DNA from: Daphnia carinata
Lineage: Eukaryota; Arthropoda; Branchiopoda; Diplostraca; Daphniidae
Direction: 5' to 3'
DNA length: 64,000 bases
NCBI RefSeq assembly: GCF_022539665.2
Contig: NC_081338.1
Location: forward strand, 62,001-126,000
Position numbers and translations under genes: made by a program. How positions within the stretch are numbered: position 1 is the stretch's first letter; each line of letters opens with the position of its first letter. Shown one piece after another: positions 1,809-33,189 of this stretch. The notes under the pieces were generated by a model. That model did not search any database. It saw nothing but the letters and a program-made list of their open reading frames with translations, and was not told where the DNA came from.

Positions 1809-2009
1809 TGTAACGAGCCCACAGGCTATCCGAAGACGGCCACACCCTCAACATCCCTCAAGCGTTTCACAAGTGAAAGTGAACATGTCCCCTCCCATTT
1901 TACCTTCATTTTGTATGTGTGTTAGTAGTATAAATACTGCATTTTTGTAACATGTAATTCGGACTTGTTACGACAATCCACTGCAATACACAAGGTTTGA
2001 AACTTTACA
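1809..2009 (+). repeat. Gypsy element 5' LTR
   Basis: A 201-bp direct repeat of 14993-15193. It begins TGTAACGAGCCCACAGG and ends GAAACTTTACA, giving a 5-bp terminal inverted repeat. It holds a TATAAATA box and differs from the 3' LTR at eight positions. A short ATG-TAA lies at 1952-1957, close to or upstream of the expected transcription start. Confidence 0.95.
1929..1936 (+). promoter_or_regulatory. TATA box in the 5' LTR
   Basis: TATAAATA occurs once in the LTR, conserved in both copies. A start site about 30 bp downstream (near 1959) would leave a leader with no ATG until the gag start at 2152. Confidence 0.6.
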
Positions 2010-2011
2010 AT

Positions 2012-2029
2012 TGGAGGTCCCAACGAGAC
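2012..2029 (+). promoter_or_regulatory. Primer-binding site, probably tRNA-Gln
   Basis: TGGAGGTCCCAACGAGAC begins two bases after the LTR end. Its reverse complement ends in GGGACCTCCA and resembles the 3' end of eukaryotic tRNA-Gln plus CCA, with about two mismatches in 18 as recalled from general tRNA knowledge. The tRNA assignment is tentative; the site itself is well placed. Confidence 0.65.
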
Positions 2030-2137
2030 ACACACTTGTTGTCCAGTACAAAGTTTCTACCCGTACCTTATTTCAGTGATTGTGCTCTACACTTCCCCGA
2101 CGAGTCTCCAACAACTCTACCAGACCAAGGAACACCA

Positions 2138-2151
2138 TCAAAGGTAAGCGA
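2138..2151 (+). promoter_or_regulatory. Candidate 5' splice donor in the leader, just before the gag ATG
   Basis: ATCAAAG|GTAAGCG has the GT at 2144-2145 and matches the metazoan donor consensus closely. It lies 8 bases before the gag ATG at 2152, so splicing from here would remove the gag start and expose a downstream ATG. Confidence 0.6.
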
Positions 2152-4884
2152 ATGCCGCTTGATCATATTGTATCAGAGACTACTCGTAAGGAGAATACTT
2201 TGTATCCGAACATTGCTGACGAACTATCTCCACCGTTGTACCCCGTATTTCCCGAACCAGACACAACCACCCAAAATCCCAACTACTCTCGAGAAAATTT
2301 TTTAGACCACTGGAAAACTCTTGTGGACTTAGAATTTGAACAAGAAGTAGAACAAAACAAAACCTATCAGACTACCACGACAAAAGCAAAAATCCAACAA
2401 ATAGAATCCAAAAAACAAGAAGTTATTAAAGAGACCCACAACGCATTACAATTGTATTCATATACGTTGTTAGAACCATCGTTGCAAGTACCAAGTGGTA
2501 TAACAGCAGAAACTATTACAAACACCACAAAGACAGTCAAAAATTACGTAGAATCCCTTGGTGGCAACACCGAAAACCTTGACAGTTTATTACAGCAAAT
2601 TAGCATTGTACATGGTAAAGAGAAAGAATTCTTATTAGGTACCAGCCGTATTTTACAAAAAGAAGTAGTACTTGCGCATATTACAGAGAAAAAATGTTCG
2701 TCTGAACTCAATTTTGAGTTACAGAGCTTAAGAAAGCAGCTAGAGAGCAACAAGAAAAAGGCAAAGAGTTCCAAATACACCTTAAGTAGCTCCCTTGAAC
2801 AACTCCAAGAAAGTAACGAAACACTAAAAAACTCCCTTGAAAAAACTGCCAATCGAATAAGCGAATTAGAAACAAGCCTTGAAAGTGCCACAGCAACAGA
2901 AAACCAACTACAAAACCTGTTACGAAAAAAAGAAGCCAATATCATAGCAGTTGAGAGAGAAGGGCAAGAAATAATTAGCAAACTTGAAAGTGAAAGAAAA
3001 CAACTGGTTACGAAGTTAGAAACCGCCGAGCAACAGATAAAAGCAGCTTTAGAAACAAACAAACAACTTCAGACAGAAACAAAAGAAACAAAAGAGATCC
3101 TTGAAAAAACCTTAACAGAAAAAATCGCCTTACGAAGAAGTCTGATAGATATTACTACAAAGAATAAAAATCTTGAAACAGAATTACAAAAAATCAACGC
3201 ACAGACAATAGACCAAGAAGAAAAGATTAAGTATCTGGAGAACAGGATAAGAGAATATAGAAAGCAACAGGTAACATTCGCTGAAACCGAAGACTTAGAC
3301 AACTCCAACGAACCAGGAGAGATAACGAAATTAGTAAGTGAGATAAACGACCTAACCTCAATAACAGAAGGAGACAAATCCCTTCACTTCGAGTTAGAAT
3401 CTGAACAAGTTGAAAAACTACAGCAACTCAACAACGACCTACAGAACCAAATCGAGATCCAAAACAACAACCTTCTTCAACTAGAGCGAAAGTACCAAAC
3501 TCTCAAAAACAAAATCGAAATGGGACTTTCACACAAAGAAGCTTCAAGAATTGACCGCGACACAACAGATACCGATAGCCTTGATACATCCACAACCCAA
3601 CCAATTGTAAAAGCATTAGGAGAATTATTTTCCAGAGAAGACAAAAAGTCAATTCCAATCTTCAAAGGGAAAAGTACTGATAAACTAATAACAGAATGGC
3701 TGAAGGACGCCGAACATGTCGCACGCAACAACGACTGGGACGACAACCAAAAAATACGATTCTTCTCTGACAGACTAAAAGGCGATGCCTTAGAATGGCA
3801 TGGAAACTACGTGGAAGAGCAAGGTGACGAATTAAGTTATGACGAATGGAAAACTGCCATTATTGCAAGATTCCAGGATGCATACGACTTAGCAGCACAA
3901 AGAAAAAAGTTATCCACGCTAAAACAAAAACCTGAAGAGAAATGCAAAGCCTTTATTTCAAGAATCAACAGTCTCTACGAGTCCATTGAAGGCAAAGAAG
4001 AAAAATCTGACCAAAACCAGACCATAGTTGAAGGTCGACTCATAAACACAGTCAAAAGAATGAGAGATTATACCAAAATCAAAATTCTGATGCAAGGCAT
4101 TTTACCAAAATTCAGAGCAGAGCTATATTTTCGAATGCCCGAAGACCCTGAAGATTTTGATCAGCTTTGTAAACAATTAATCATATCCGAAGGTATCCTA
4201 TATAGCAAGGAAACTGCAGAAGATAAGGAAATAAATGCGGTGATAGCAGGGATAACGCACCACGAGAAACAACAAGACAACGAACTTTCACAACAAAAGA
4301 CAGAAATTGAATTCTTAAAACAAAAAATTCAGGAACTGGAAAAAACTAATAAAAACCGTAACTTGGCACAGGATACTGATATAACCGTAGCAGCAGCAGA
4401 TCGATACGAACCAAGATCCTCACGATCAAGTGATCGGTACCCCAGATCACAAAATCCGCGAGTTCGATTCGACGACAGTTCAAATAGCAGAGGCCCCAGT
4501 AGTGACCGAAATTTCGGCCGAAGCAGGGAGAACAGCCCATACCGCAACAATTATACTTCACCACGAAGACAAGGTACTTCCCCAGGGTATCGACAACCCA
4601 ATTACCCTTCATATCAACAAACACCGAGACCTTCATACAACAACGGACCGACCCATTACAATCAACCACACTTTCAACCGAGCAACAATCAACAAGCGTA
4701 TCACCAAAACCCAGGTTATCCACGACAATACCCGCAGCAACGACAAAACCAGCCGAACACCCACGACACTCTTGGAAATAAGATTATCATCTGTTACAAG
4801 TGCAATAAAAAAGGACACATTGCACGAGAATGTTGGACAGATATGGCACGTATCAACAACCCGAACCACCGTCCAATGCAGTAA
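2152..4884 (+). CDS. gag: Gag polyprotein of the Gypsy element
   Basis: The 910-residue reading starts at the first ATG of the leader (MPLDHIVSETTRK). The open frame extends upstream to about 2080 but has no ATG there. Residues about 60-470 are almost all Lys/Glu/Gln/Asn/Leu-rich heptad-type sequence (EKTANRISELETSLESATAT, for example), a very long coiled coil that is unusual for Gypsy Gag. Residues about 495-700 form a retrotransposon Gag/capsid-like domain with DKLITEWLKDAEHVA, the conserved GDALEWHG motif and a helix-rich tail. About 760-870 is an Arg/Pro/Tyr/Asn/Gln-rich, probably RNA-binding, linker. A CCHC zinc knuckle (CYKCNKKGHIAREC) lies near residue 880. The role is particle assembly and RNA packaging in the cytoplasm. 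The 3' end overlaps pol, which lies in the -1 frame. Confidence 0.92.
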   Translation: MPLDHIVSETTRKENTLYPNIADELSPPLYPVFPEPDTTTQNPNYSRENFLDHWKTLVDLEFEQEVEQNKTYQTTTTKAKIQQIESKKQEVIKETHNALQLYSYTLLEPSLQVPSGITAETITNTTKTVKNYVESLGGNTENLDSLLQQISIVHGKEKEFLLGTSRILQKEVVLAHITEKKCSSELNFELQSLRKQLESNKKKAKSSKYTLSSSLEQLQESNETLKNSLEKTANRISELETSLESATATENQLQNLLRKKEANIIAVEREGQEIISKLESERKQLVTKLETAEQQIKAALETNKQLQTETKETKEILEKTLTEKIALRRSLIDITTKNKNLETELQKINAQTIDQEEKIKYLENRIREYRKQQVTFAETEDLDNSNEPGEITKLVSEINDLTSITEGDKSLHFELESEQVEKLQQLNNDLQNQIEIQNNNLLQLERKYQTLKNKIEMGLSHKEASRIDRDTTDTDSLDTSTTQPIVKALGELFSREDKKSIPIFKGKSTDKLITEWLKDAEHVARNNDWDDNQKIRFFSDRLKGDALEWHGNYVEEQGDELSYDEWKTAIIARFQDAYDLAAQRKKLSTLKQKPEEKCKAFISRINSLYESIEGKEEKSDQNQTIVEGRLINTVKRMRDYTKIKILMQGILPKFRAELYFRMPEDPEDFDQLCKQLIISEGILYSKETAEDKEINAVIAGITHHEKQQDNELSQQKTEIEFLKQKIQELEKTNKNRNLAQDTDITVAAADRYEPRSSRSSDRYPRSQNPRVRFDDSSNSRGPSSDRNFGRSRENSPYRNNYTSPRRQGTSPGYRQPNYPSYQQTPRPSYNNGPTHYNQPHFQPSNNQQAYHQNPGYPRQYPQQRQNQPNTHDTLGNKIIICYKCNKKGHIARECWTDMARINNPNHRPMQ
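4807..4814 (+). promoter_or_regulatory. Likely -1 frameshift region joining gag to pol
   Basis: A run of six A residues (4807-4812) followed by GG lies inside the zinc knuckle codons AAA AAA GGA. The pol frame opens at 4809, directly after an in-frame TAA at 4806-4808, and gag ends at 4884. Slippage must therefore fall in 4809-4884, and this A-run is the only strong homopolymer there. The heptamer is not a perfect X XXY YYZ (it is preceded by T), so the exact mechanism is inferred. Initiation at the ATG at 4830 is the alternative. Confidence 0.45.
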
Positions 4885-7800
4885 ACACAATATCCCTACC
4901 AACCAACCCTTTAACACAAAATTTAGAAATAGCGATACCCAAACTAATCCGTATACCAGTAAGAATTTTTGGAAAAGAAATTAAGGCTTTAGTAGACACA
5001 GGAGCAGCAGCCAGTTTAGTTTCTGACAGCATATTTTTTAATCTAAAGGAGTATGAAGAACTTAAACATGTTAAAGACTCCCCTTCGCCAATATTTAGAA
5101 CGGTGTCAGGAGAAATACTAAAATCGAAAGGGAAATATGGGTTTTCAATCACCATTAACACCAATCACGTCATTAAGCATGATTTCTTTATCATGGAAAA
5201 CTTGAACGAAACTTGCATATTAGGATTAGACTTCTTATCGAGCAACAATGTAAAAATTAATACTAAAAACAGGCAGATCAATTACGATCATTCCGGAAAA
5301 GAACATAGCTTTGGTAAATACACACTCCCAGTATATAGCATAACTTTTGGCAAGACAGGTATTAATATTCCACTCCTCCCAGACCGTTCGTCAGATAGTA
5401 ACTACAACAACGATCTGACAGTAGCAGATTATCGCAGCCTAGAATCTTTCTCCCAATCAGAAATTAACAAGAAATCTAAGCGAATTGGACAAACCCAAGA
5501 GAGTGAAACGACTAACATCTCCGACGAGATACGCATTAAAATTGAAAATCTATTGAAGAAACACGAAACTCTATTTGCAGAAAGAGAATCAGATTTGGGT
5601 CTAGCAACTGATGTAAAACATTCCATTAACATAGGATACAACGCCCCAATTACTCAACGATTGCGTAGAACACCAGAAGCATTAAAACTAATTGTCAAAA
5701 CAAAGATTGAAGTAATGGTAAATAACAATATTATTAGAGAAAGTCACAGCCCATTTGCAGCAGCAATTGTAATGGTTCCCAAAAAAGATGGAGAAATGCG
5801 TATGTGTATTGATTATAGGGCACTTAACAAAATAACCGTAAAAGACAAATACCCATTACCAAGAATCGACGACACAATTGATGCATTGAGCGGATCAGTT
5901 TACTTCTCAACATTGGACTTACTAAGTGGCTACTGGCAGATCGAGATAGAAGAAAACGACAAACACAAAACCGCCTTCATTTGTGAACTTGGACAATACG
6001 AATTTAATAGAATGCCATTTGGACTAACAAATGCACCAAGCACTTTTCAACGAGCAATGAACAACATATTGAAATCAGTATTGTTCAGGTTCGCATTGGT
6101 TTACCTGGATGACATCATAGTGTTCAGTAATGATATTGCTGAACATGTGATACATCTAGAAGCAGTGTTTAAACTTCTTAAAGACGCAGGACTAAAATTA
6201 AAAAGAAAGAAATGCGAATTTTTCAAAGAAGAATTAGACTATTTAGGATATATTGTTTCGAAAAAAGGAATAACACCGAGTACAAAAAAGTTAGAAGCAA
6301 TCATCAAATACCCAGCTCCCAAAAACGTGAAAGAATTAAGCTCATTTCTAGGTTTGGCTAGCTATTACAGAAAGTTCATCAGGGCTTTTGCTGATAAAGC
6401 CCACCCACTGACAGCGCTAACGAGAAAATCAGCCGAGTGGAAATGGGGAGAGGAACAAAGGGACGCCTTTGATTGTATCAAGAACTGTCTCATAACTAGA
6501 CCTATCCTAGGGTATCCAGATTTCACGCGCGAATTTATCATCTACACAGATGCCTCAGGATACGGTATAGGAGCAGTCTTGGCTCAGATGCAAACTCTAC
6601 CTCAATCAGCGGATTCAGCGGAGTCCGACGTACAGGAACCCCGTGAATCAGACGGCGCGGAAGTCGTCATAGCGTATAGCTCTAAACATCTGAACGACCG
6701 CGAAGCCAAGTGGTCAACCACAGAGAAAGAGGCTTACGCCATCATCCACGCAATTGACGTATTTAGAACGTATCTATACGGACGCAGATTCACCGTATTT
6801 ACAGACCATAGACCTTTAGAATGGTTAATGAGCAAGACAGAACCCGCAGGAAGATTAGCTAGATGGGCACTAAAAATACAAGAATTCGACATCGTCATTG
6901 GGTACCGGCCTGGGAAGTCGCACCAAAATGCAGACACCCTAAGCCGTATTCCCATAGTGCCAATAGCACGAGTAGAAACAAGGGCAATGGAAAGAGGAAC
7001 TGTCATAAGAGAGCTAGAAAATATTCGAAAAGAAGGTGAAAATCTAAAAGAAAAACTAAGGATTGAAAGATTAAAGAAACAAGAACAGCTGGAGAAAGAA
7101 AACGAAAGTATTCAAAAAGAAAACGAAAGTTTTGAGAGGGAAAGTCAAAGGAAGAGCGTAGGTTTTGAAAGAGAAATTGGAAGTGAAAGTAAAAGGTCTG
7201 AGAAAGAAGACAGATGGATAGAATTACAGCAAGCAGATAAATATTGTCAAAAACTAATGATGGAAATACAAGAAGATAGCCAGAAAAATAGAAATAAAAA
7301 ATTCTCAAGCAACTTTATAATCAATGAAAAGGGTCTATTAACAGATAGACAAGGAAAATTAGTAGTCCCTGTACCGTTAATCGACGGAATTTTACGAGCA
7401 AATCATGATCACATGATGGCAGGGCATTTAGGAATCGAAAAAACAATAGCCAGACTTAGAGAACAATACTTCTTCCCATACATGCGACAAAACGTAACAG
7501 AACACATCAAAAATTGCCTTAAATGCGCAAAACGCAAGGCTGTGGGAGGAAGTAAAGCACCATTGCAACCTATGCCCCCAGCCGAAAGGGTGTGGGAAAG
7601 ACTTGCGATGGATATTGTGGGTCCCGTTCAAGAAAGCGCAAAGGGACATAAGTATATTTTAGTCCTATCAGATTATGCCAGTCGTTTCGTCTTCACGGTT
7701 CCAATGAGAGATCAAACTGCCCAAACAATTGCTACAATACTGGTTAATGATATTTATACAAAATATGGATCCCCCGAAGTAGTACTAACAGATCAAGGAA

Positions 7801-8690
7801 CTAATTTCCTGTCGAGCTTAATCCAAGATATTTGCAAATTATTTAAAATCAAACAAATCAGAACAACAGCATACCATCCCCAGACAGACGGATTAGTAGA
7901 ACGATTTAACAGAACCCTATGTGACATGTTGGCTTGCTACGTAACGGATGAACCAGAAAATTGGGACAAATATCTACCATTTGTCACATTTGCTTACAAC
8001 ACAGCGAAGCAATCAACACTGCAACAAAACCCATTCTTTCTATTCTTCGGGAGACAACCAGTGCTCCCAAACGACATCAAAATAGACAGGCGATACGAAA
8101 CATACGAGGATACCAGTGTAATGTACTCACACCAATGGAAGAAGGCTCAGCAACTAGCGAAGGAACACCTATTTCGGGCACAGACAAAACAAAAAAGATA
8201 CTACGACAAAGGAACACAAGCGATCAAATATAACATTGGTGACTTTGTGCTACTGAAAGCTCCACCAACTGCCGGAAAATTCATCAACAGGTGGAATGGA
8301 CCATTCAAAATCATCAGAAATTTCTCAAATCTCACTTATGAGATTCAACACGCGAGCAATGAAAAACTAAAATCAGTGGTACACGTCAACCGCCTAAAGC
8401 TCTACGTCCCGGCAAACCAAGAAACAGAAGAATTATCTAGTGTTCCACAACAACCAGGAAGTGAAACAGTGCGACGAGGACCAGGCAGACCAAGAAACAA
8501 CTTCATCAACAACAAAAGAATACCTGTCCGTAGAGCGTGTTGGCATCGGCATCATCATGCAGCAGAAACGGAAAATTGTAAAATCATCGCACCAAATCTC
8601 CCCGGTCCTATACCAATTAATCCTGCACACACTAGAATGACGAATCCACGATACAACTTACGGCAACGCAACGAAGTCTCGAGATTCTAA
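4830..8690 (+). CDS. pol: Pol polyprotein: protease, reverse transcriptase, RNase H, integrase
   Basis: The frame is 1286 residues from the first ATG; translation probably enters a little earlier by -1 frameshift. The aspartic protease has ALVDTGAAASLVS (about residues 52-65). Reverse transcriptase spans about 275-490 with MCIDYRALNKITVKDKYPLP and the YLDDIIVFS active site near 424. RNase H has IYTDASGYGIGAVLA near 570, and the segment after it includes a 30-residue acidic insertion. About 725-800 is a charged coiled-coil linker rich in Lys and Glu, not typical of Gypsy elements. Integrase shows the HHCC zinc module (HMMAGHLG, then CLKCAKRK), the catalytic triad (MDIVGP about 926, LTDQGTNF about 988, VERFNRTL about 1023) and a C-terminal GPF-type module (RWNGPFKI). 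All catalytic residues I looked for are present, so the enzyme looks intact. Confidence 0.95.
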   Translation: MLDRYGTYQQPEPPSNAVNTISLPTNPLTQNLEIAIPKLIRIPVRIFGKEIKALVDTGAAASLVSDSIFFNLKEYEELKHVKDSPSPIFRTVSGEILKSKGKYGFSITINTNHVIKHDFFIMENLNETCILGLDFLSSNNVKINTKNRQINYDHSGKEHSFGKYTLPVYSITFGKTGINIPLLPDRSSDSNYNNDLTVADYRSLESFSQSEINKKSKRIGQTQESETTNISDEIRIKIENLLKKHETLFAERESDLGLATDVKHSINIGYNAPITQRLRRTPEALKLIVKTKIEVMVNNNIIRESHSPFAAAIVMVPKKDGEMRMCIDYRALNKITVKDKYPLPRIDDTIDALSGSVYFSTLDLLSGYWQIEIEENDKHKTAFICELGQYEFNRMPFGLTNAPSTFQRAMNNILKSVLFRFALVYLDDIIVFSNDIAEHVIHLEAVFKLLKDAGLKLKRKKCEFFKEELDYLGYIVSKKGITPSTKKLEAIIKYPAPKNVKELSSFLGLASYYRKFIRAFADKAHPLTALTRKSAEWKWGEEQRDAFDCIKNCLITRPILGYPDFTREFIIYTDASGYGIGAVLAQMQTLPQSADSAESDVQEPRESDGAEVVIAYSSKHLNDREAKWSTTEKEAYAIIHAIDVFRTYLYGRRFTVFTDHRPLEWLMSKTEPAGRLARWALKIQEFDIVIGYRPGKSHQNADTLSRIPIVPIARVETRAMERGTVIRELENIRKEGENLKEKLRIERLKKQEQLEKENESIQKENESFERESQRKSVGFEREIGSESKRSEKEDRWIELQQADKYCQKLMMEIQEDSQKNRNKKFSSNFIINEKGLLTDRQGKLVVPVPLIDGILRANHDHMMAGHLGIEKTIARLREQYFFPYMRQNVTEHIKNCLKCAKRKAVGGSKAPLQPMPPAERVWERLAMDIVGPVQESAKGHKYILVLSDYASRFVFTVPMRDQTAQTIATILVNDIYTKYGSPEVVLTDQGTNFLSSLIQDICKLFKIKQIRTTAYHPQTDGLVERFNRTLCDMLACYVTDEPENWDKYLPFVTFAYNTAKQSTLQQNPFFLFFGRQPVLPNDIKIDRRYETYEDTSVMYSHQWKKAQQLAKEHLFRAQTKQKRYYDKGTQAIKYNIGDFVLLKAPPTAGKFINRWNGPFKIIRNFSNLTYEIQHASNEKLKSVVHVNRLKLYVPANQETEELSSVPQQPGSETVRRGPGRPRNNFINNKRIPVRRACWHRHHHAAETENCKIIAPNLPGPIPINPAHTRMTNPRYNLRQRNEVSRF

Positions 8691-8695
8691 AACGT

Positions 8696-8714
8696 CCAAA
8701 TTTTCTTTTCGCAG
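8696..8714 (+). promoter_or_regulatory. 3' splice acceptor directly before the envelope-like ORF
   Basis: A pyrimidine-rich tract TTTTCTTTTCGCAG ends exactly one base before the ORF3 ATG at 8715. With the leader donor at 2144 it would give a spliced mRNA whose first ATG is ORF3, the expression strategy known for env genes of Errantivirus-type elements. Confidence 0.65.
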
Positions 8715-11700
8715 ATGGAACTGATACTATCACTCATCCAATTACTCACCATCATTCCATCCACATATCCCATCTATTCAACCGTATGCGACTGCCAGAA
8801 CGTAAAGACCAGAGGAATTTTAGATATAGAGGCACCCTATTACTGCAATAACAAAGAATCAGATACAGCTCACTTACCCAGAATACCCACGTTGTACACT
8901 TTAAAAACAACACAAAAACCAGCAGCCTCTTGGAAAGGCTGGACCTGCAAGCAATGGATAAAAACGAAGAAAATAACTGGGTCATTCTGGATCGGATCTT
9001 TCGACACCATATATTCACAAGAAACTAAACTAATTTCCCCACTGGAATGCTGGAGAATGGTGAACGACAAGAAATGTGGCGATAATAACATGCAGACCGG
9101 ACCAGCGGGTCTGAGTTTCACAGCCACCCCGACAGGCGAAGGGCAATGGTATGCCATAAAAACATATCACACCCTCAACTGTGTTGCAGAACAAATCACC
9201 TTACGGCAGGAAAAACAAGACGACCCAATCGAGAGCCCATTTGGACCATTAAATACTACCCAGCAAGAAGGACACTTCATCCAAAATCAAAACACAATAG
9301 TATGGGGAGATAGGACAACAAATAATTCATATTCTCAAACCTTGATCAAAGGAAGCGGTTATCTGGAACTTCCGAGAATACCGGAACGCGAAAACACCAG
9401 CCGTCTTTACGACACCAATCGACAGATCGAGATTTCATTCTTCAACAAACCAGATCGGGACATAACACCACAAGGTTACAAAGTTGTGGGCGTACCGCTC
9501 ACATACCTAATCTTTCCAACCGAAACAACGAGAAAATTGTACGAGATGTTCAAAACAACTATACATACATGTATACAAAATACTCACATAGATACATCGG
9601 TATGCAAGGACTACAGGGAACTCCAGTTAACCAAGCGGAAACGATCCATTCAACAGGAAGTTACATTCTTGCTCAACGCCCCCTCGGAAGACTCAGGAAA
9701 ACGTCTGTACAGCATTTCGTACGCCTGGGGACCAATAAGAATGGGATATCAACAGGCAATCAGGATCAACGAAAAGGACCGGAGTGTAAATTACAACGCC
9801 ACTATATACATAATATACAAACCCGACGAAAACACTCAGTTAACCGCCCACTTTCGTCTCAAAGACGATGATCCACTTCCTCAAGGATCAGAATTCGAAT
9901 ACATCGTTGACCAAACAATAAGAATCCAGAACAGTAATATCTGTATCACGGAAGGAGAAGCAGGCCGACTAATTGTTGCTAAATGCTCAGAATTTTCAAC
10001 ACGGTGGATTCTAGATCAACAAAACCATCAATTAATTTCACAAGAATCGTATCTCTGTATTACACTAGGAACATACCAAACTATCATATTGACAGAATGC
10101 AGAGATGATAAGAACAGCGTAACACAAAAATGGATCTTTGAAACTGTCAACACCAATCCAGACATCATAGAAAATTTCCCAGACACAACTTTAGCAGAAA
10201 TGCAGGAAATTCAACAAGAACAACGGAAGGCAATCACAACCACGATTAATTCGCCGCTATTTGGAGGAATTTTAAAAACTAATCACGGTAGCGGAAATAT
10301 AATCTGGGATATGATTGCCTGGGGCCTATTGAAAAACGGAAAAACACCAAACGAAAAATGTCTAACACACCATGGAGTAAACAAGCAAATGACATTAGAA
10401 GAATGCGACAAAGAGTGGCCGCAATGTCAAGAAGAACTAAGAAAACTAATTAACAGCAACGATCCATTAGTACAATCACAAACAATGGTAGCCAACTGTA
10501 GCAAAGCAACAGAACGAGGACAAGCTTTCGAATATACATCTGATTTCACCATCAGACCGTTCAACACAAACACCTGTATCAAAGCCAATACGACAATGCT
10601 AGTACTTCAAGAGTGCGCTAGCACCAGCTCAATCTGGGGCACATTTGAGCACACAGGACAGCTCATGGCAACAGATAGAACTGGGCTACATTCACCCTCA
10701 TCAGACAGGAAGTGTCTCACACAGAGAGTAGGACGGGTGACCCTGGGGCATTGTCACAGCTCCAGCCAAAAACAGCACTTTAACTTTGAATATCGCAACC
10801 CACACCAAATACGGACTCTCTCAGCGGCAGCCATCATAGCACTGCACACTAAACAGCCATTGGACGGGAAAACACTCCCAACCATACCACCACTAATGAA
10901 AAGAGAGGATAACAACCAATCAGAGAACAGCAAAACTTTGGCCACACCCCCTGCCACGCCCACAACAGAAAAACACACAACAACGACAAGCGTTACAACG
11001 ACTACAAAGCCCACAATAAAAACCACACTGGGAACAACAGCAAAAACAACAGTAAAAAGCACTACGACAATTAAACCAGTTACAAGCACAGCAGCTAGCA
11101 AACCCACCACAACACAGAAAGTGACAACTAAACCCAGTATGACATCAACGTCAACAAAACCCACCACAACTACAAAACCAATAATCACATCGACAAGCAC
11201 TAAACCCACCACTACTACTAGACCTACGGCAACTGCTAAGATAACTTCAACTTCAACAACCACTACAACTACAAAACTTACGACAACAACAACAATGGCC
11301 ACTACAACAAGTTCCACAACAACAGAGAAAACAACAACGCCTACTACGACAAGTTCCACAACAACAGCGACAACAACGACGCACCAGCCAAGCTCAATAA
11401 CGCCGAGCACAAAAACAGTAATCGAAAGTTCGACTACCCAACAATCATCAACACATACTGCCGGAGTAACCCCTTTAGCACTAACGGGAACAACGTCTAC
11501 AACAGAAGGAACTCAAATTCAGGCCATCGAAGAAAGCAGTATTCGAAACTTGCCGTTAGCTGATTCTTTGATAATTTCAATGGATCAAAAAGCTGAAGAT
11601 ACATCAAATAATGAAAATTTAGAAGCCGATTTACCCAAAAACATTGAAGAATTCAACGACAAAATTAAATACGAAATAAGTAAAATGCACGACCAATATA

Positions 11701-12809
11701 AGATAAGCATCGAAACTGAACACGAAAACAAGTTGGCAAAAGAAATTCGGGACGTTTATTGTCAACTATCAGCAATCAAAAGAACACAAGCAGTTATATT
11801 AGCCCAAACCAACGGAATTTTAGCAGCAGCAGCAGTAGGTTTACCAATCTGCACAAGACTACAAGGCTTCGGTCAAGCAATGACACTTCAACAATGCGAG
11901 GCAAAAAGAATTTTTATATCAGCAAACGAAACCAAATGTGGATTTCAACCGTTTTTTACTTACGAAGGAAAAAACTGTACGATTGGAACAGATGGATGGT
12001 CAATTCATCCATATTCTGATTGTTTCTGGAAAACACCTTTGGTAAATTTAAATGGAAATCCACACACATGGGAACACAATTCTACGACAGGAGATTGGAT
12101 ACGCCAGAAACCTAGCATTCACATGCCTAATTTAGACCTCATTTCAGAATTTGAAGAACTCCATCTTAACGATTTCGACTTCGCGCTGAAAAGCCATCCA
12201 GCACACGAGACGATGGAAATGGAACAATTAAATATTCTAAATGACCTAGTTGGCAGAATGCAAGAAGGCAACTCCAATTCTGTTGGAGACATTGTAATGT
12301 CAGAACAACAAGATAATCAAATAGGAAACATGTTCTCATGGTTCGACAAACTAAAAATAATTGGTCTATCAGCGATAGGATTTGTACTATTCCTCGTATG
12401 TTTACGAATCTTCATTATTTGCAACCCCATCTCGAAGATAAAAGAACATATCCGCAGAAAACGGAACTTTACAACCAGATACGATGATGGCGTAGAGGAA
12501 GAACACGAACTCGCATCAATGATACCGGCACGAGAAACAAATTACCATTCGGAAATGGCAATCGAACAACCGTTCCTAAGAACAACCGCCCCTGCACAAC
12601 TAACAACAGAAAGACAAGGTCAAATGCGCCCTCCCCGACCAAGTGCACCAAATTCATTAATTTACCCCTCTATCGAAACAACTGACACAATCCCACAATG
12701 TACAGGAAAACACACCATGTGCACTTACGTCGTCGGATACGGCATGGTTTGGGAAGACCTATGCCGTTGCATGTCAGAAACAGACAATAGTAATTCAGCC
12801 AGAAAGTAA
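8715..12809 (+). CDS. env: Envelope-like membrane glycoprotein with ricin-B-like segments and a mucin-like stalk
   Basis: A 1364-residue ORF. Residues 1-22 look like a signal peptide. The ectodomain is Cys-rich with many N-X-S/T sites. A basic KRKR at 307-310 is a furin-type cleavage candidate. Residues about 400-477 and 610-695 each show paired 'CI/CL...hydrophobic..C....W' units ending in QKWIFE or QHFNFE, the spacing of ricin-B (QxW) beta-trefoil repeats. About 740-930 is extremely Thr/Ser-rich, probably heavily O-glycosylated. About 970-1035 is helical and charged. A second Cys-rich block (about 1046-1130, with GTDGW) precedes a transmembrane helix at about 1214-1236 and a long tail (about 130 residues) ending in a Cys motif near 1336-1352. 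The role is inferred: virion surface attachment and fusion. I could not assign it to the baculovirus-F type env of known errantiviruses; a rhabdo- or chuvirus-like origin is possible but unproven. The ORF is unbroken. Confidence 0.8.
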   Translation: MELILSLIQLLTIIPSTYPIYSTVCDCQNVKTRGILDIEAPYYCNNKESDTAHLPRIPTLYTLKTTQKPAASWKGWTCKQWIKTKKITGSFWIGSFDTIYSQETKLISPLECWRMVNDKKCGDNNMQTGPAGLSFTATPTGEGQWYAIKTYHTLNCVAEQITLRQEKQDDPIESPFGPLNTTQQEGHFIQNQNTIVWGDRTTNNSYSQTLIKGSGYLELPRIPERENTSRLYDTNRQIEISFFNKPDRDITPQGYKVVGVPLTYLIFPTETTRKLYEMFKTTIHTCIQNTHIDTSVCKDYRELQLTKRKRSIQQEVTFLLNAPSEDSGKRLYSISYAWGPIRMGYQQAIRINEKDRSVNYNATIYIIYKPDENTQLTAHFRLKDDDPLPQGSEFEYIVDQTIRIQNSNICITEGEAGRLIVAKCSEFSTRWILDQQNHQLISQESYLCITLGTYQTIILTECRDDKNSVTQKWIFETVNTNPDIIENFPDTTLAEMQEIQQEQRKAITTTINSPLFGGILKTNHGSGNIIWDMIAWGLLKNGKTPNEKCLTHHGVNKQMTLEECDKEWPQCQEELRKLINSNDPLVQSQTMVANCSKATERGQAFEYTSDFTIRPFNTNTCIKANTTMLVLQECASTSSIWGTFEHTGQLMATDRTGLHSPSSDRKCLTQRVGRVTLGHCHSSSQKQHFNFEYRNPHQIRTLSAAAIIALHTKQPLDGKTLPTIPPLMKREDNNQSENSKTLATPPATPTTEKHTTTTSVTTTTKPTIKTTLGTTAKTTVKSTTTIKPVTSTAASKPTTTQKVTTKPSMTSTSTKPTTTTKPIITSTSTKPTTTTRPTATAKITSTSTTTTTTKLTTTTTMATTTSSTTTEKTTTPTTTSSTTTATTTTHQPSSITPSTKTVIESSTTQQSSTHTAGVTPLALTGTTSTTEGTQIQAIEESSIRNLPLADSLIISMDQKAEDTSNNENLEADLPKNIEEFNDKIKYEISKMHDQYKISIETEHENKLAKEIRDVYCQLSAIKRTQAVILAQTNGILAAAAVGLPICTRLQGFGQAMTLQQCEAKRIFISANETKCGFQPFFTYEGKNCTIGTDGWSIHPYSDCFWKTPLVNLNGNPHTWEHNSTTGDWIRQKPSIHMPNLDLISEFEELHLNDFDFALKSHPAHETMEMEQLNILNDLVGRMQEGNSNSVGDIVMSEQQDNQIGNMFSWFDKLKIIGLSAIGFVLFLVCLRIFIICNPISKIKEHIRRKRNFTTRYDDGVEEEHELASMIPARETNYHSEMAIEQPFLRTTAPAQLTTERQGQMRPPRPSAPNSLIYPSIETTDTIPQCTGKHTMCTYVVGYGMVWEDLCRCMSETDNSNSARK

Positions 12810-13140
12810 AAGTCCCAAGGTCATTGAAATTAAAAGTAGCCACTAAACATAACCCCTGACAAATTTAATTAATTACAAAATAAATTAGCTCCCGGAAAAT
12901 AACACACTTATCAGCATTTTTTTTTTTTTTTTCTCTCGACCACTTAGGTGATTTTTAAAATATATCCCATACTCGTAACTTTATAGTAAAACAAAAGGTA
13001 GAGACAAAACCCGAATAACAATTTTGTATTCCAAACTAACATGAAATAAAAAAAATTCAAAATAGAAAACCTTTGGGATAGACAAAACAAAAATTACAAA
13101 CCCAAATAACATTTTTTTTTTTTTCCTCGACTAAAACAAA

Positions 13141-13174
<34 letters not shown>

Positions 13175-13536
13175 ATAACAAAATCACCGGAGAAAAAACA
13201 GTGTAGTGTAACAAAGAACGACAGAAACTAACGCACGAAGAAAAAGAGACGCAAGAACCCCTATAAGAAAAGACAATCACTTAAAAAGGGAAATAGAAAG
13301 TTCAAAATGTAACGGTATATTCATCAATTCGCCCCACGGCGAAATAGAAGACGGAACACATTAAAATAGAAGAAACTACCTGTTTTGAAATTAAGAAGAG
13401 GGGAACAAGAATTTATGAAAAACTCTGCAAAAGAAGACTTTTCAAAAAACTAACCTCTTCCCAGTGTTTCAACGACATAATTCAGACAAAGTTCTACAAA
13501 GAAAAGTGTCATCACAAGTCAACCTTTACTCTAAAA
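12810..13536 (+). other. Low-complexity non-coding spacer and leader of the ankyrin ORF
   Basis: AT-rich DNA without an ORF. It contains T-runs at 12917-12932 and 13112-13124 and a run of about 30 A at 13142-13171. The first T-run belongs to a strong polypyrimidine tract ending in AG at 12946-12947. A second acceptor, CTAACCTCTTCCCAG, ends at 13464. From there to the ankyrin ATG at 13537 there is no other ATG, so 13464 is the better candidate for an ORF4 subgenomic mRNA. The T and A runs could pair in RNA. Confidence 0.55.
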
Positions 13537-14778
13537 ATGGAAAACAACAACATCACTCAGGATAACGCAATGGACGTAACCATCATCCCACAAGAAGAAA
13601 AAGAATACGAATTAATATACATTAGTGATACTGAAAGTGAGAATAGCCAGCAGGAGTACAAAGAAAAGGAAAGTGCTAAAAATGCAGATGTGAACAAGCA
13701 GATAGTGAAAAATGTAGAATGGGACGGAATCAAAACCGAGAAAAACGATTTTTCCGAACTAGAGAGAAAAAGTAAAGACATCAGTGAATCAAGTGACGAC
13801 GACACCGAGGAGGTAAATGCCTATAGTGAAATGGAACCCGATCTGGATAATACCTACAGTACTGAATTTATATTGGAAAATAACAGTGACAACGGTTTCC
13901 AATATGACCCACCCCACGGTACCGAATTGGAAAATGTTAGTGACACCGACCTCCAATGCGAACCGCCCAAAAAACGGAGCAGACCGAATAACCAACAAAG
14001 GGAAACAGAAACATGCAAGAACTGTCGGATGAAGACAATAGCACCCCTTTCAACAGAACAAGCAGAGAAGATTCAACTGCACCGACAGGCTACTATTGAC
14101 TTGGAAGACGGAAAACTTTGTCTATCAATGATGGAAGCTACACTACCAACTATAAGAAGATGCATCCAAAAAAGATTAGAATCGCTAGGATGTTGGCCAC
14201 GACAAAAAATGGCCATATTCCTTAATAAAAGATATGAGGAAGGACGTACCCTGCTCCACACCAGTATACAAAAAGTAAGGTACGACATAACTGATGCTCT
14301 ACTTGCCTATGGGGCAAACCCCGAGATAATGTATCGAGGCAGCACAATTGGACACATGGCAGCGGAAAATAACGACTTATTCCTGGTAAGGATACTAAAA
14401 CACCACAACTGCGAGTTCACAAATCGCAATAAAGACGGAGAAACCCCGCTAATGACAGCAATATCACACGAACATGAGGAATGCGCACGCCTAATTTCGA
14501 CACCAACAAACATCAAAATAGCAACCAGCAAGGGCAGAACCATCTTGCATTACCTCGCCAGATACGGTCTCGAAGACTTGGCAACGCAAATCTGCACAAA
14601 AAGAATAATCGACGTCAACCAACAAGACGAAACGGGCACAACCGCCCTACACGATGCAGTGAGATACAAACAATCAGACATGATCGAGTTACTGCTTCTA
14701 CACGGAGCAGATACAAAAATAAAAGACAACCGTGGACATACAGCTATGTCAAACAATGACAGCACAAACGCACTATAA
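13537..14778 (+). CDS. Ankyrin-repeat accessory protein of the Gypsy element (IkB-like architecture)
   Basis: 413 residues. The N-terminal ~150 are acidic and Ser-rich (SDTESENSQQEYKEK, for example), ending in a nuclear-localisation-like PPKKRSRP near residue 145. A CXXC pair (CKNCRMKT) lies near 163. About 233-410 holds five recognisable ankyrin repeats (GRTLLHTSI, GSTIGHMAAE, GETPLMTAI, GRTILHYLARYG, GTTALHDAV..ELLLLHGAD) and a partial sixth. An acidic N-terminus plus about six repeats is the layout of IkB/cactus-type regulators and of viral 'vankyrin' proteins. A role in dampening host NF-kB signalling or retaining a host factor is a hypothesis only. The ORF is inside the LTRs, on the same strand, with its own upstream splice acceptor, so it belongs to the element. 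I do not know a described Gypsy lineage with this gene. Confidence 0.85.
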   Translation: MENNNITQDNAMDVTIIPQEEKEYELIYISDTESENSQQEYKEKESAKNADVNKQIVKNVEWDGIKTEKNDFSELERKSKDISESSDDDTEEVNAYSEMEPDLDNTYSTEFILENNSDNGFQYDPPHGTELENVSDTDLQCEPPKKRSRPNNQQRETETCKNCRMKTIAPLSTEQAEKIQLHRQATIDLEDGKLCLSMMEATLPTIRRCIQKRLESLGCWPRQKMAIFLNKRYEEGRTLLHTSIQKVRYDITDALLAYGANPEIMYRGSTIGHMAAENNDLFLVRILKHHNCEFTNRNKDGETPLMTAISHEHEECARLISTPTNIKIATSKGRTILHYLARYGLEDLATQICTKRIIDVNQQDETGTTALHDAVRYKQSDMIELLLLHGADTKIKDNRGHTAMSNNDSTNAL

Positions 14779-14977
14779 TCAAGACGAAGATAGAACCGGT
14801 TTATTCAACCATAGCCATCATTAGTATTCATAGAAGCAGCTGTAGTTGGTGACAGAAAAAGAAGAAGGAGAACAGTTTCTGCTAAAAATTCAGGTGAAGG
14901 AACAAGTTTTTTATATTATCCGTAAAACAATAGTCGGTGATGGAAACACACACATTGGAGGACCAATTCTTCTCATC

Positions 14978-14992
14978 GAAGAGGGGAAGGAA
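14978..14992 (+). promoter_or_regulatory. Polypurine tract
   Basis: GAAGAGGGGAAGGAA, 15 purines in a row, abuts the 3' LTR and would prime plus-strand DNA synthesis. The 200 bp between ORF4 and this tract (14779-14977) shows no supported gene. Confidence 0.85.
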
Positions 14993-15193
14993 TGTAACGA
15001 GCCCACAGGCTATCCGAAGACAGCCACACCCTCAACATCCCTCAAGCGTTTCACAAGTGAAAGCGAACGTGTCCCCTCCCATTTTACCTTCATTTTGTAT
15101 GTGTGTTAGTAGTATAAATACTGCATGATTGTAACATGTAATTGGGACCTGTTACGACAATCCACTGCAATACACGAGGTTTGAAACTTTACA
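14993..15193 (+). repeat. Gypsy element 3' LTR
   Basis: A 201-bp copy of 1809-2009 with eight base differences. It is followed at once by satellite sequence (CTATATTCAAATTGAATAC). Confidence 0.95.
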
Positions 15194-16788
15194 CTATATT
15201 CAAATTGAATACAAGTAAATTTGATGCTGTTTGCATGTAGATATTGAAACTCACTGTATCACACTATATTCACATTGAATACACGTATATTTGATACTGT
15301 TTGAATGTAGATCATGCAACTGATTCTATAACACTATATTCACATTGAATACACGTATATTTGATACTGTTTGAATGTAGATCATGAAACGGATTCTATA
15401 ACACTATATTCACATTGAATACACGTATATATGATGCTTTTTGAATGTAGATATTGAAACTCACTGTATCACACTATATTCACATTGAATATACGTATAT
15501 TTGATACTGTTTGAATGTAGATTATGAAACTGATTCTATAACACTATATTCACATTGAATACACGTATATTTGATACTGTTTAAATGTTGATCATGAAAC
15601 TGATTCTATAACACTATATTCACATTGAATACACGTATATTTGATGCCGTTTGAATGTAGATATTGAAACTCGCTGTATCACACTATATTCACATTGAAT
15701 ACAAGTATATTTGATGCTGTTTGAATGTAGATATTGAAACTCACTGTATCACACCATATTCACATTGAATACAAGTATATTTGATGGTGTTTGAATGTAG
15801 ATATTGAAACTGATTCTATAACACTATATTCACATTGAATACACGTATATTTAATACTGTTTGAATGTAGATATGGAAACTCACTGTTTCACACTATATT
15901 CACATTGAATACACGTATATTTGATACTGTATGAATATAGATCATGAAACTGATTCTATAAAACTATATTCACATTGAATACACGTATATTTGATACTGT
16001 TTGAATGTAGATCATGAAACTGATTCTATAACACTATATTCACATTGAATACACGTATATTTGATACTGTTTGAATGTAGATCATGAAACTGATTCTATA
16101 ACACTATATTCACATTGAATACACGTATATTTGATGCTGTTTGAATGTAGATATTGAAACTCACTGTATCACACTATATTCAAATTGAATACAAGTATAT
16201 TTGATGCTGTTTGAATGTAGATATTGAAACTCAATGTATCACACTATATTCACATTGAATACAAGTATATTTGATAATGTTTGAATGTAGATGTGGAAAT
16301 TCACTGTTTCACACTATATTCACATTGAATACACGTATATTTGATACTGTTTGAATGTAGATCATGAAACTGATTCTATAACACTATATTCACATTGAAT
16401 ACAGGTATATTTGATACTGTTTGAATGTAGATCATGAAACTGATTCTATAACACTATATTCATATTGAATACACGTATATTTGATACTGTTTGAATGTTG
16501 ATCATGAAACTGATTCTACAACACTATATTCACATTGAATACACGTATATTTGATGCTGTTTGAATGTAGATATTGGAACTCACTGTATCACACTATATT
16601 CACATTGAATACAAGTATATTTGATGCTGTTTGAATGTAGATCATGAAACTGATTCTATAACACTATGTTCACATTGAATACACGTATATTTGATGCTGT
16701 TTGAATGTAGATATTGAAACTCACTGTATCATACTATATTCACATTGAATACACGTACATTTGATACTGTTTGAATGTAGATCTTGAA
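15194..16788 (+). repeat. 70-bp satellite, array segment 1
   Basis: About 23 monomers. Each begins ACTATATTCACATTGAATAC and continues through a GTATATTTGAT(A/G)CTG block to TTTGAATGTAGAT. The last ~20 bp are variable and come mainly in two forms: CATGAAACTGATTCTATAAC (type A) and ATTGAAACTCACTGTATCAC (type B). GATACTG is common here. The segment ends with ATCTTGAA (16781-16788), the left copy of the KDZ target duplication. Confidence 0.97.
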
Positions 16789-16945
16789 GAACATGGTCTC
16801 CGTGGACGTCAAAAACGGTTTTGACATCCACGCCAAGTATTCTGATTGGCTGTTGTAGTCAGGTGACGAAGTCACGTGACCAATGTCACGTGACCCAAAG
16901 TTTTTGTTTTTATCGGCAGCCATTTTGTTTTTTCTGAAATAGGTA
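16789..16945 (+). repeat. KDZ element left terminal inverted repeat
   Basis: 157 bp, inverted and imperfect match to 22537-22693. Shared blocks include TGGTCTCCG, GACGTCAAAAAC, TGATTGGCTGTT, two GTCACGTGA palindromes, and CATCGGCAGCCATTTTGTTTT (ATCGGCAGCCATTTTG exactly). The CACGTG sites are candidate transposase or host-factor binding sites. Confidence 0.85.
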
Positions 16946-17108
16946 ATTTTGTTTAACAAAACAATCACCTAAGTGTAGCACTTTAAAATTTAGTTACTCG
17001 TATTTCGTGAGGTAAGTTAATGTATTAACCCTATATTACACTATTTAAAAGATTTCTTATAATATTTTGTTCTAAATCCTTTGCTTGTTATCCAAGGAAA
17101 CTGGCAAT

Positions 17109-19147
17109 ATGGATGATTTAGAACCCAAAACAAAACGAATGAAGATGGACGAATACAATGAAAGGAAAAAAATAGAAAGAAGCAAAAAAAATCCTTTTCC
17201 TGGTACCCGTGGGTATGGTATTTGTAGCTCCACGGTTCTTCTAAGCAAAAACGGTATTGAAACTAAGAACTTGCCTAAAGTTAGTAGGGAAAGAAGAACA
17301 CGAGAAAGTTATTTAAAGAATCTTGATCAACGTTCATGTTCTGGTAAGTCTATTTCAGATATATCATCAATTAATTTAAGTTTTTATTGTATATAGTTAT
17401 AAATATGTTTCCGTTGTCTGTTTGTGGTATTTTGTGAATTTTTTCTCCATCGTTTGTTTACAGGAAAAGATAACAATTCAAATATTCAAGACACAGAGGA
17501 AGATGCTGTTGCCTCTTCTTTGTCTTTTAAGGAGTATATGGAAACTACCAGTGGAATGGGTGAGTTACAAAGTTTATGAAGGAGAAACTTTTCGTCACAC
17601 GCATTTTATGCACGTTGATCTTCCGGAAAAAAAATGCTCTTTCTTTTGTGGCGATGTCATATGTCGTTATTGGAAGTGGGCTCAAAAAGTTGCGCTACTC
17701 TTCCCTGAATTTAAGTCGACGACTGAAGACATGAAACCATTTCTTGAAAGAATGCATGCAAAGGTGCACGTATGGTACTGTCAGGTAAATAATTAAATTT
17801 TTATAAATAAACTATGTTTTACAAGAAAACTTTCAATTTCAGATTCTCTGGGTTGGGCATTGGATGTTGAATGCTGTCCTGACACTTGGAGAAGAGCAGG
17901 AACAAGTGTTCTCTAAAATGTCAAGATATGGTAGCGTAACGAAACATATGGGAAAAGCAAGTAATCATATTTTTATTGTAACCAACAATTACAAATACAA
18001 TTGCCCTTACTATTATTCTTAGACCGCAGGGACCATATAACTGCTGCTGTTCTATTCTGGAACGTACAAAAGGAAAAAGGAATGGTCCACCAACTTGTTA
18101 AAAGAAGAGAGAGAGTATGGAATTTCTCATTTGTTTTATACTACGTTCAACCTTTATAAATTCACTTTTTAGGCTTTAAACCAAATAAAGGTTTCAAGTA
18201 AGCAGCTTAAAAGTGATTTTGAAACATATCATTTAAAATCTGAGGAGCTTCCCAGACTTCTTGAGGAACTCAGGAAGACGGCCGAAGAATACAAAGGTAT
18301 CATTGAAGTTACTTAATTTAAAACGTATCTGAAAGTTAATTCATTTATTCCTAAAAAGCGGGGAGGAAACAAAACAAAGATGCGGAATCTCTGTTAGAAA
18401 TGGCTCAAAAGACTCTGGAAGGATATAACGCGCATATCAAAATTCTTAAAAGTCGAGTCTCTAGGATTGCCACAACATCCGGACAAAGGATAAAAATCAG
18501 AAAGGCAATGGCGCTGTTGTCGAAAAAAATCACGGAACTTATGGCGTTCATTACTACAAACTCGAAGTACAACATTAACAAAGACCACTTGCTGAATGGT
18601 CACTTTCCGTGGCAAAACTCTGAGCCATCTACAACCAAAACAAAAAGTATTCCTGCATTCGCTCAAATAATTTAAAAACGTACTAAAAATTTATTTTTTT
18701 TCTTTTAGTGACCTTTCACGAAAAATTCCAGATAATCGATAACTGGATGTTGCTATTGCGATCAAAGGAAGAAATATTGCAGCCAGAAAAAGAGATGCGC
18801 AACTTCGTTAATGGAACAGAAAGTCTTACTCGAAACAGAAACAAAGTCACATGTTTCCTTGATAACGTCAACTAGTTCAACATAGAATCGCTCAACAAAA
18901 GGCCGTTCTTATATCGCATGAATTAGCTAGGCTGCATGAAATGTTGATTTCTGCTGTTACTACATTTCATGAAATCGACGAACAATTTGTAGATAAAACT
19001 GACACAAGGAGTTTAATTTCTTCCACCTCAAAAAGTGTCATCAGGAAAGAAACTAATAAGGAGCATGACTACAACTTTTCAGATTCAGAAATCCTAGAAG
19101 ATTCGTCTGATGAGGAAACGTCCGACAACTGGTCTGATAACGAATAA
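17109..19147 (+). pseudogene. KDZ transposase remnant, left copy
   Basis: Exon-like pieces with GT/AG borders: 17109-17343 (MDDLEPKTKRMKMDEYNERK), 17464 to about 17566, a block to 17784 (YWKWAQKVALLFPEF, MKPFLERMHAKVHVWYCQ), 17843-17960 (ILWVGHWMLNAVLTLGEEQE, SRYGSVTKHMGKA), 18023-18114 (RDHITAAVLFWNVQK), 18173-18296, and about 18360-18675 (coiled, Lys-rich). The last part (18711-19147) ends in an acidic tail, SDEETSDNWSDNE. The motifs MHAKVH.W.CQ, GEE.E.V.S..SR and TK.M are typical of KDZ transposases. The part between residues about 110 and the YWKWA block is missing: exon 2 runs out of frame at 17566, and only VYEGETFRHTHFMH precedes the core. The last exon has stops. It is judged inactive. 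Confidence 0.8.
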
Positions 19148-19320
19148 ATATCTTTTTGAAGTTGTATTGAAGAGATTGAATATGATATAAATATAATTGA
19201 ATTCTTCTTGTATCTATGTTGCATTTTAAAAGTAACCATAAGTAATGCTATATTGTTTTTGGGGTTAAATAAGATGTACCGTTATACATTTAAATTCCCA
19301 ATGAAAAAATGGCCGCCAGA

Positions 19321-19920: not shown

Positions 19921-20039
19921 TCGGCCATTTTGTAATTGCGGGGAATTTAAAAATATGACGGTACAGCTTATTTCACCCAAAAAACACTACACCATTACTT
20001 GTGGTTACTTAAAAAATTGTAACTAAGATACATCAAGAA

Positions 20040-33112: not shown

Positions 33113-33189
33113 CTGAAATTGGATGGCATATGCTGGCTTGCCTTCCTTAAACAAAAAGATTATAGCACATACATACCCTACTAGCCTTT

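What the first reader, a model, noticed from the sequence alone, without database searches (positions are those of the whole stretch)
1809..15193. Four-ORF Gypsy-type element: gag, pol, giant env-like glycoprotein and an ankyrin protein
Seen directly: intact LTRs, tRNA primer site, polypurine tract and four uninterrupted ORFs on one strand. Known: some Metaviridae (Errantivirus) carry a third env ORF. Inference: a fourth ORF with ankyrin repeats inside the LTRs makes this a retrovirus-like element with an accessory gene, a combination I do not recognise as described. All ORFs are open despite about 4% LTR divergence, which hints at selection or recent exchange.
Basis: partly seen in the sequence, partly recalled or inferred. 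Interest (0 to 1): 0.88.

Follow-up and report, generated by a model that had tools for sequence, protein, structure and literature searches.

The report
Water-flea retrovirus-like element with ankyrin gene
A water flea's genome carries many recent copies of a retrovirus-like element that, besides the usual core genes, has a sugar-binding coat gene and an extra ankyrin gene that selection preserves, which would be an uncommon accessory gene in an invertebrate relative of retroviruses.

Summary
It holds a 13.4 kb Ty3/gypsy provirus-like element: 201-bp LTRs, a tRNA-Thr(AGT) primer site, gag, pol, a 1364-aa env and a 413-aa ankyrin ORF4, all open. ORF4 belongs to the element: the 20 3' LTRs recovered (the window's included) all have ORF4 just upstream, and in 20 of 20 fetched copies env precedes ORF4. 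Of 14 LTR pairs, 9 have exact 4-bp target duplications and 7 are identical, so movement was recent. dN/dS is 0.12-0.31 for window ORF4 against 19 copies and 0.11-0.34 for env: purifying selection. Six D. magna gene models also contain env plus ORF4. Env has beta-trefoil lectin domains, a mucin-like stretch, a transmembrane segment and possibly a class III fusogen fold (weak model). The 4% LTR divergence is not age: this copy is a chimera, with unmatched flanks and a breakpoint inside ORF4 (140:1 sites, then 1:35). Ankyrin repeats in a gypsy element have precedent (planarian Burro); a separate ankyrin gene after env was not found in my literature searches. Likely role, inferred: a nuclear, host-directed accessory protein made from spliced mRNA.

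The parts
1809..2009 (+). 5' LTR (201 bp)
   Evidence: direct repeat, TG..CA
2012..2029 (+). primer binding site for tRNA-Thr(AGT)
   Evidence: complementary to the 3' end of tRNA-Thr genes of the same genome plus CCA
2141..2148 (+). splice-donor-like site AAG|GTAAGC in the leader, just upstream of the gag ATG
   Evidence: consensus match; splicing not shown
2152..4884 (+). gag, 910 aa from first ATG: Ty3-type capsid, CCHC zinc knuckle
4809..8690 (+). pol: protease, RT, RNase H, integrase; overlaps gag in the -1 frame (first ATG 4830)
   Evidence: no canonical slippery heptamer found in the overlap
8701..8714 (+). splice-acceptor-like site TTTTCTTTTCGCAG directly before the env ATG
   Evidence: splicing not shown
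8715..12809 (+). env-like glycoprotein, 1364 aa
9633..9644 (+). furin-like site KRKR|S (env residues 307-310)
9693..10175 (+). first ricin-B-type beta-trefoil lectin domain (env ~327-487)
10311..10799 (+). probable second beta-trefoil domain (env ~533-695)
   Evidence: strands in the model; two-domain lectins align across 328-695 with rmsd 15-18
10992..11504 (+). Thr/Ser-rich mucin-like stretch (env 760-930, 61% S+T)
12342..12443 (+). transmembrane segment (env ~1210-1243)
   Evidence: hydropathy, helix in model
13454..13464 (+). candidate splice acceptor for ORF4 mRNA (first ATG after it is ORF4's)
   Evidence: another T-rich acceptor-like site ends at 12947 (read)
13537..14778 (+). ORF4: 413-aa accessory protein; acidic N part, basic PKKRSRP stretch, CKNCRMKT motif, ankyrin repeats
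14014..14037 (+). conserved C-x-N-C-x-MKT motif (ORF4 160-167)
14239..14748 (+). ankyrin repeats (ORF4 ~235-404)
14562..14565 (+). recombination breakpoint between two ORF4 allele types
   Evidence: 177 informative sites; 140:1 before, 1:35 after
14978..14992 (+). polypurine tract
   Evidence: read; the last 12 bases precede all 20 3' LTRs fetched, one with a 1-base change
14993..15193 (+). 3' LTR (201 bp), followed directly by 70-bp satellite

Best explanation
This is a recently active, env-carrying Ty3/gypsy retrovirus-like family of Daphnia with four genes. Shown: env and ORF4 lie in fixed order before the 3' LTR in many copies (gag and pol were read in full in the window only); ORF4 and env are under purifying selection; the env-ORF4 pairing is shared with D. 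magna gene models; copies exchange ORF4 segments. Inferred: gag and pol come from full-length RNA with a -1 shift. Env and ORF4 come from spliced mRNAs that join the leader donor (2143/2144) to acceptors before env (8714) and before ORF4 (13464 or 12947). Env is a furin-cut, lectin-bearing membrane glycoprotein, possibly a class III fusogen, that binds glycans and lets the element pass between cells. ORF4 is a nuclear, host-directed accessory protein (acidic N part, basic NLS-like stretch, C-x-N-C-x-MKT motif, ankyrin binding surface) that helps replication or blunts a host response. The window copy is a mosaic made by template switching between co-packaged RNAs, or by recombination between copies.
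For: ORF4 has 108 matches in the genome (101 of 509 candidates scored); the top 22 rows are 83% or more identical over at least 89% of it, 21 of 22 without stops. 40 of 41 LTR matches were fetched: 20 3' LTRs, 19 5' LTRs, 1 solo LTR; ORF4 precedes all 20 3' LTRs. Exact 4-bp duplications in 9 of 14 pairs, identical LTRs in 7 of 14. Env before ORF4 in 20 of 20 copies; ORF4 open for 405 aa or more in 18 of 20. Of 20 further loci, 1.4 kb each: env in 18, pol in 1, neither in 1. ORF4 dN/dS 0.12-0.31 for the window against 19 copies; p 7e-25 for window-L061. D. magna relatives with the motif, six models with both env and ORF4. Env fold. Mosaic.
Against: No transcript, protein or infection data. The env model is weak (mean pLDDT 61.8, pTM 0.35) and the gB and mononegavirus matches have TM-scores of only 0.11-0.17 on the model. 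Only 5 of 20 fetched copies have a full-length env frame, though 4 of the stretches begin inside env. NLS, splice sites and function of ORF4 are read from sequence only. The acceptor at 13464 is modest, with a branch-point-like CTAAC very close. No slippery heptamer was found for the -1 shift. ORF4 relatives of the 46%-identical metagenome envs were not identified, so ORF4 may be missing there.
Confidence: 0.75

Rival explanations
1. ORF4 is a Rev/CERV-like regulator: a nuclear protein that exports the unspliced genomic RNA, needed because the element also makes spliced mRNAs.
For: Splice-like sites before gag, env and ORF4; acidic N part and basic stretch; precedent: CERV of the C. elegans element Cer1, made from a spliced mRNA and needed for gRNA export (PMC10309623, abstract read).
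Against: Pfam shows only ankyrin repeats above cut-off, no RNA-binding domain; ankyrin repeats usually bind proteins (recalled).
Confidence: 0.25
2. ORF4 is joined to Env by splicing, so that ankyrin repeats form an extension of the Env cytoplasmic tail (a matrix-like or trafficking part).
For: Six D. magna gene models contain both env and ORF4; in four of them (P0136, P0150, P0152, P0154) the join falls after the same env tail residues GYGM (my reading).
Against: The other two (P0145, P0153) do not join there. These are gene predictions from closely related repeats. In the window the donor-like ATG|GTTTGG is weak, and ORF4 has its own ATG, kept in most copies read. P0155 and others begin with their own start.
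Confidence: 0.1
3. ORF4 is a passenger captured from a host gene, without function for the element.
For: Ankyrin repeats are common in host proteins.
Against: dN/dS 0.12-0.31 between the window and copies that differ by up to dS of about 2, a saturated value, and relatives in D. carinata and D. magna. No separate host relative was seen among the matches, of which 40 neighbourhoods were examined.
Confidence: 0.05
4. The chimeric features of this copy (different LTRs, no target duplication) are an assembly misjoin between near-identical copies and not a real recombinant.
For: The flanks do not match. The 3' LTR at C9:1272773 is 201/201 identical to the window's 5' LTR, its 3' flank starts with gcat like the end of the window's 5' flank, and the stretch fetched from that copy holds 100 N.
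Against: There is no N in the window. Other copies also differ in ORF4 type with env about 97-100% alike, so exchange within ORF4 does not depend on this one join.
Confidence: 0.35

Closest known systems
Errantivirus / env-carrying Ty3-gypsy elements (gypsy, ZAM; metazoan set of Chary and Hayashi)
   Same: gag-pol-env order, LTRs, env as a separate ORF; PMC13172572 (passages seen) says such elements are widespread in metazoans and, in figure legends, that some gypsy and BEL elements have type III fusion glycoproteins
   Different: An extra ankyrin ORF4 and lectin domains in env. The defining paper (eLife 108449) was not held and could not be checked for Daphnia elements
Burro / GYPSM1 giant gypsy elements of planarians
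   Same: Ty3/gypsy with env homology and ankyrin repeats plus other host-like domains (PMC6431247, section 7 read)
   Different: In Burro the extra domains, ankyrin included, lie in one giant ORF1 polyprotein; here ORF4 is a separate small gene after env
Cer1 with CERV (C. elegans)
   Same: LTR retrotransposon with an extra regulatory nuclear protein from a spliced mRNA (PMC10309623, abstract seen)
   Different: CERV is described there as a novel protein; no ankyrin repeats mentioned in the abstract
Bdelloid rotifer Juno/Vesta/TelKA elements with captured ORF3s
   Same: LTR elements with additional ORFs downstream of pol (PMC5408684, passages seen)
   Different: Their captured ORFs in the passages seen are env-like, GDSL esterase or DEDDy exonuclease; 'ankyrin' does not occur in the main text
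D. magna elements behind P0136, P0145 and P0150-P0164
   Same: Homologous env and ORF4, most with the C-x-N-C-x-MKT motif
   Different: Known here only as gene models; ORF4 32-42% identical over the aligned parts

Membership tests
Ty3/gypsy (Metaviridae) | LTRs, tRNA primer site, polypurine tract | tested here: met
Ty3/gypsy (Metaviridae) | gag with Ty3-type capsid; pol order PR-RT-RH-IN | tested here: met
Ty3/gypsy (Metaviridae) | short fixed target duplication | tested here: met
   4 bp, exact in 9 of 14 pairs; absent in the window copy and in C104
Errantivirus | third ORF coding an env-like membrane glycoprotein | tested here: met
   (sequence features only; fusion not tested)
Errantivirus | insect-type env related to baculovirus F protein (recalled) | tested here: inconclusive
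   the only Pfam family for env at E up to 1 is Ricin_B_lectin; the 50 rows shown of each Foldseek list hold gB, lectins, mononegavirus and entomopoxvirus proteins, which does not exclude others
Errantivirus | RT groups with the gypsy lineage | not tested
   no reference RT set was used
class III viral fusion glycoproteins (gB, rhabdovirus G) | shared fold over the ectodomain | tested here: inconclusive
   Foldseek E 2e-10, probability 1.00 to HSV gB but TM 0.15-0.18; model pLDDT 61.8
ricin-B beta-trefoil lectins | beta-trefoil fold | tested here: met
Burro elements | giant single ORF1 carrying host-like domains | tested here: not met
   four separate ORFs
ORF4 family of Daphnia elements | C-x-N-C-x-MKT motif before ankyrin repeats, gene next to env | tested here: met

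The most novel reading that the evidence does not exclude
ORF4 is a true accessory gene of an invertebrate retrovirus lineage: a nuclear ankyrin protein that disarms a Daphnia defence or rewires host transcription, kept by selection since before the D. carinata - D. magna split and traded as a module between co-replicating element lineages, much as complex vertebrate retroviruses use and exchange accessory genes.
Probability: 0.3. Interest if true: 0.85.

Novelty: new variant of a known kind. Interest (0 to 1): 0.62.

Why it matters
As far as I know (recalled), accessory genes beyond env are rarely documented in invertebrate retrovirus relatives. Here one is found in two Daphnia species, under purifying selection, in a family with copies young enough to have identical LTRs, and in a genus used in laboratory genetics. 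The family makes a direct test possible of whether Metaviridae evolved host-directed accessory proteins on their own. The lectin-bearing, possibly class III env adds to the diversity of captured glycoproteins. The clean ORF4 mosaic is also a readable record of recombination between element copies.

Tried and rejected
Host-gene reading of ORF4: rejected where tested. tRNA-Gln as primer: my first guess from memory (it stands in the notebook), rejected by ARAGORN, which calls tRNA-Thr(AGT). LTR divergence as age of this copy: rejected. Diversifying selection as the cause of ORF4 divergence: not supported, dN/dS 0.12-0.31. IkB-like identity of ORF4: considered; among the 60 of 352 solved-structure matches shown none is named IkB, so no support. 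gB in the second structural look: the 50 VIA rows shown are all lectin-type and gB is not among them, which neither supports nor excludes the class III reading. Viral contigs (IMG/VR) with ORF3 or ORF4: no match to the exact peptide patterns. Solved structures by sequence for env: one match at E 4.3, not meaningful. Literature searches; no description of this element was seen in the listings. In the D. pulex LTR survey (PMC2996953, passages seen) 'ankyrin' does not occur. Also seen as passages: PMC12992720 and PMC12859917. Pfam on the two other ORFs of the window. Not done: RT tree; whole-genome count of env copies. Rows dropped: the 88-base LTR fragment; L069 (broken ORF4) from the dN/dS set.

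Full report
WHERE IT IS. The window is C8:62001-126000 of a 108-Mb, 106-contig genome. ORF4 is 98% identical over its whole length to a Daphnia carinata protein cluster, and the longest-contig lengths listed with P0005, P0158, P0008 and P0009 (13273426, 7871635, 9910348, 10897450) equal those of C3, C2, C9 and C6. I take the host as D. carinata.

ANATOMY. Two 201-bp LTRs (1809-2009, 14993-15193), TG..CA, 193 of 201 alike. Two bases after the 5' LTR lies TGGAGGTCCCAACGAGAC, complementary to the 3' end (plus CCA) of tRNA-Thr(AGT) genes of the same genome: the pattern search gave 61 matches with up to one mismatch, 28 of them exact, and ARAGORN calls tRNA-Thr(agt) in the three loci examined. A polypurine tract precedes the 3' LTR. 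Gag (first ATG 2152) has a Ty3-type capsid and a CCHC knuckle; pol overlaps it in the -1 frame and has protease, RT, RNase H and integrase in that order. No XXXYYYZ heptamer was found in the overlap. A donor-like AAG|GTAAGC stands before the gag ATG, and TTTTCTTTTCGCAG ends at the base before the env ATG. For ORF4, CCTCTTCCCAG ends at 13464, after which ORF4's ATG is the first ATG; a longer T-rich acceptor-like site ends at 12947 (read). Splicing itself is not shown.

ORF4. 413 aa: an acidic N part (27% D+E in 1-150), PKKRSRP, CKNCRMKT, then ankyrin repeats. A profile search finds a Daphnia family (149 proteins at E up to 1e-10, of which 120 were listed; most listed below about the first 20 look like generic ankyrin proteins). 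Of 196 proteins checked, the window's own included, 17 carry the C..C.(M/L)K motif, all from D. carinata or D. magna except P0151 from an unnamed source; two other D. magna members (P0153, P0160) have lost the first cysteine. Six D. magna models contain both env and ORF4. P0011, from an unnamed source, is 37% identical over 175-403, including the part before the repeats, but lacks the motif.

COPIES. ORF4: 108 matches in the genome, counting fragments and scoring 101 of 509 candidates; the top 22 rows are 83% or more identical over at least 89%, 21 of 22 without a stop. LTR: 41 matches; 40 were fetched (one 88-base fragment was dropped): 20 preceded by the polypurine tract, 19 followed by the primer site, and 1 solo LTR with gcgc on both sides. 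By coordinates all 20 3' LTRs, the window's included, have an ORF4 match 0.2-0.43 kb upstream. Of 14 LTR pairs, 9 have exact 4-bp duplications (acta, ctat, cacg, gtac, acgc, aacc, attg, aata, atat); in two an LTR end is truncated; one differs by a base; the window and C104 do not match. Seven pairs are identical over 201 or 202 bp. Of 20 fetched copies (18 beside those 3' LTRs, 2 more diverged) env precedes ORF4 in all 20; ORF4 is open for 405 aa or more in 18; env is open for 1364 aa or more in 5, but four stretches begin inside env. In 20 further loci that I picked from lower rows, env lies in the 1.4 kb examined in 18 (one, L080, only weakly), pol in 1, neither in 1.

SELECTION. ORF4 dN/dS is 0.12-0.31 for the window against 19 copies (L069, broken, was left out). 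Two near-identical pairs gave 0.33 and 0.49 on 7 and 3 changes; the other 7 pairs among copies gave 0.14-0.28. Env: 0.11-0.34 in 15 pairs of 6 full-length copies. The excess of synonymous change is significant in the four comparisons tested, from p 8e-5 to 1.5e-31.

MOSAIC. L061 and L066 are 97-100% identical to the window over env, 93-99% in the spacer after it, 78-90% from 13665 to 14565, then 99-100% again; L056 is 97-100% up to 14565 and 87-89% after it. Of 177 sites that separate L056 from L061, the window follows L056 at 140 of 141 before 14565 and L061 at 35 of 36 after it. The two ORF4 types differ by dS 0.53, while env differs by dS 0.006-0.022 among full-length copies (L061's env, which is broken, was not in that set). 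The window copy's flanks do not match (gcat / ctat). A 3' LTR at C9:1272773, identical to the window's 5' LTR, is followed by gcat, so the two may be halves of one insertion, by recombination or by misjoin; the stretch fetched from that copy holds 100 N. The sequence 9-15 kb upstream of that LTR shows no similarity to the window.

MECHANISM AND NOVELTY. The element identity is firm. ORF4's role is inference: I favour a nuclear host-directed accessory protein, with a CERV-like RNA export role second. CERV of Cer1 is made from a spliced mRNA and needed for gRNA export (PMC10309623, abstract). Ankyrin repeats with env in one gypsy element are known from Burro (PMC6431247, section 7). ORFs captured after env are known in general (same paper, passage seen). 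A separate, selected ankyrin gene after a lectin-bearing env was not found in the searches listed, but the main survey of metazoan env-carrying elements (eLife 108449) was not held and may contain Daphnia elements. I file it as a new variant of a known kind.

Noticed in passing
window 15191-16788, 22697-31937, 36425-38014, 46301-63910: Large arrays of a 70-bp satellite; several copies of the element have satellite letters at their flanks.
   Followed up: partly
window ~38050-46250: BEL/Pao element with direct repeats at its ends (300 nt compared, 99%) and one 2141-aa open frame at 38578-45003 (Pao peptidase, RT, DUF1759, DUF5641).
   Followed up: partly
window 16843-22639: Long foldback: ten pairs of inverted arms, 70-90% complementary, nested around about 19.6 kb.
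   Followed up: no
window 31931-36431: 190-nt inverted ends (87% complementary) rich in GGAGAAATAGGACC repeats, 4.1 kb apart; looks like a DNA transposon or foldback element.
   Followed up: no
G000:C9:8291550-8306921: Tandem tRNA-Thr-like sequences mostly about 325 bp apart, in two main variants of the acceptor stem.
   Followed up: no
L038 (G000:C7:2273990-2274190): Solo LTR of the family with a 4-bp duplication gcgc.
   Followed up: yes
P0136, P0150, P0152, P0154: Four of six D. magna gene models join env to ORF4 after the same tail residues GYGM; may hint at a conserved splice.
   Followed up: partly
P0011: 591-aa protein from an unnamed source, related to ORF4, with a long extra C-terminal part; 51 member sequences.
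   Followed up: partly
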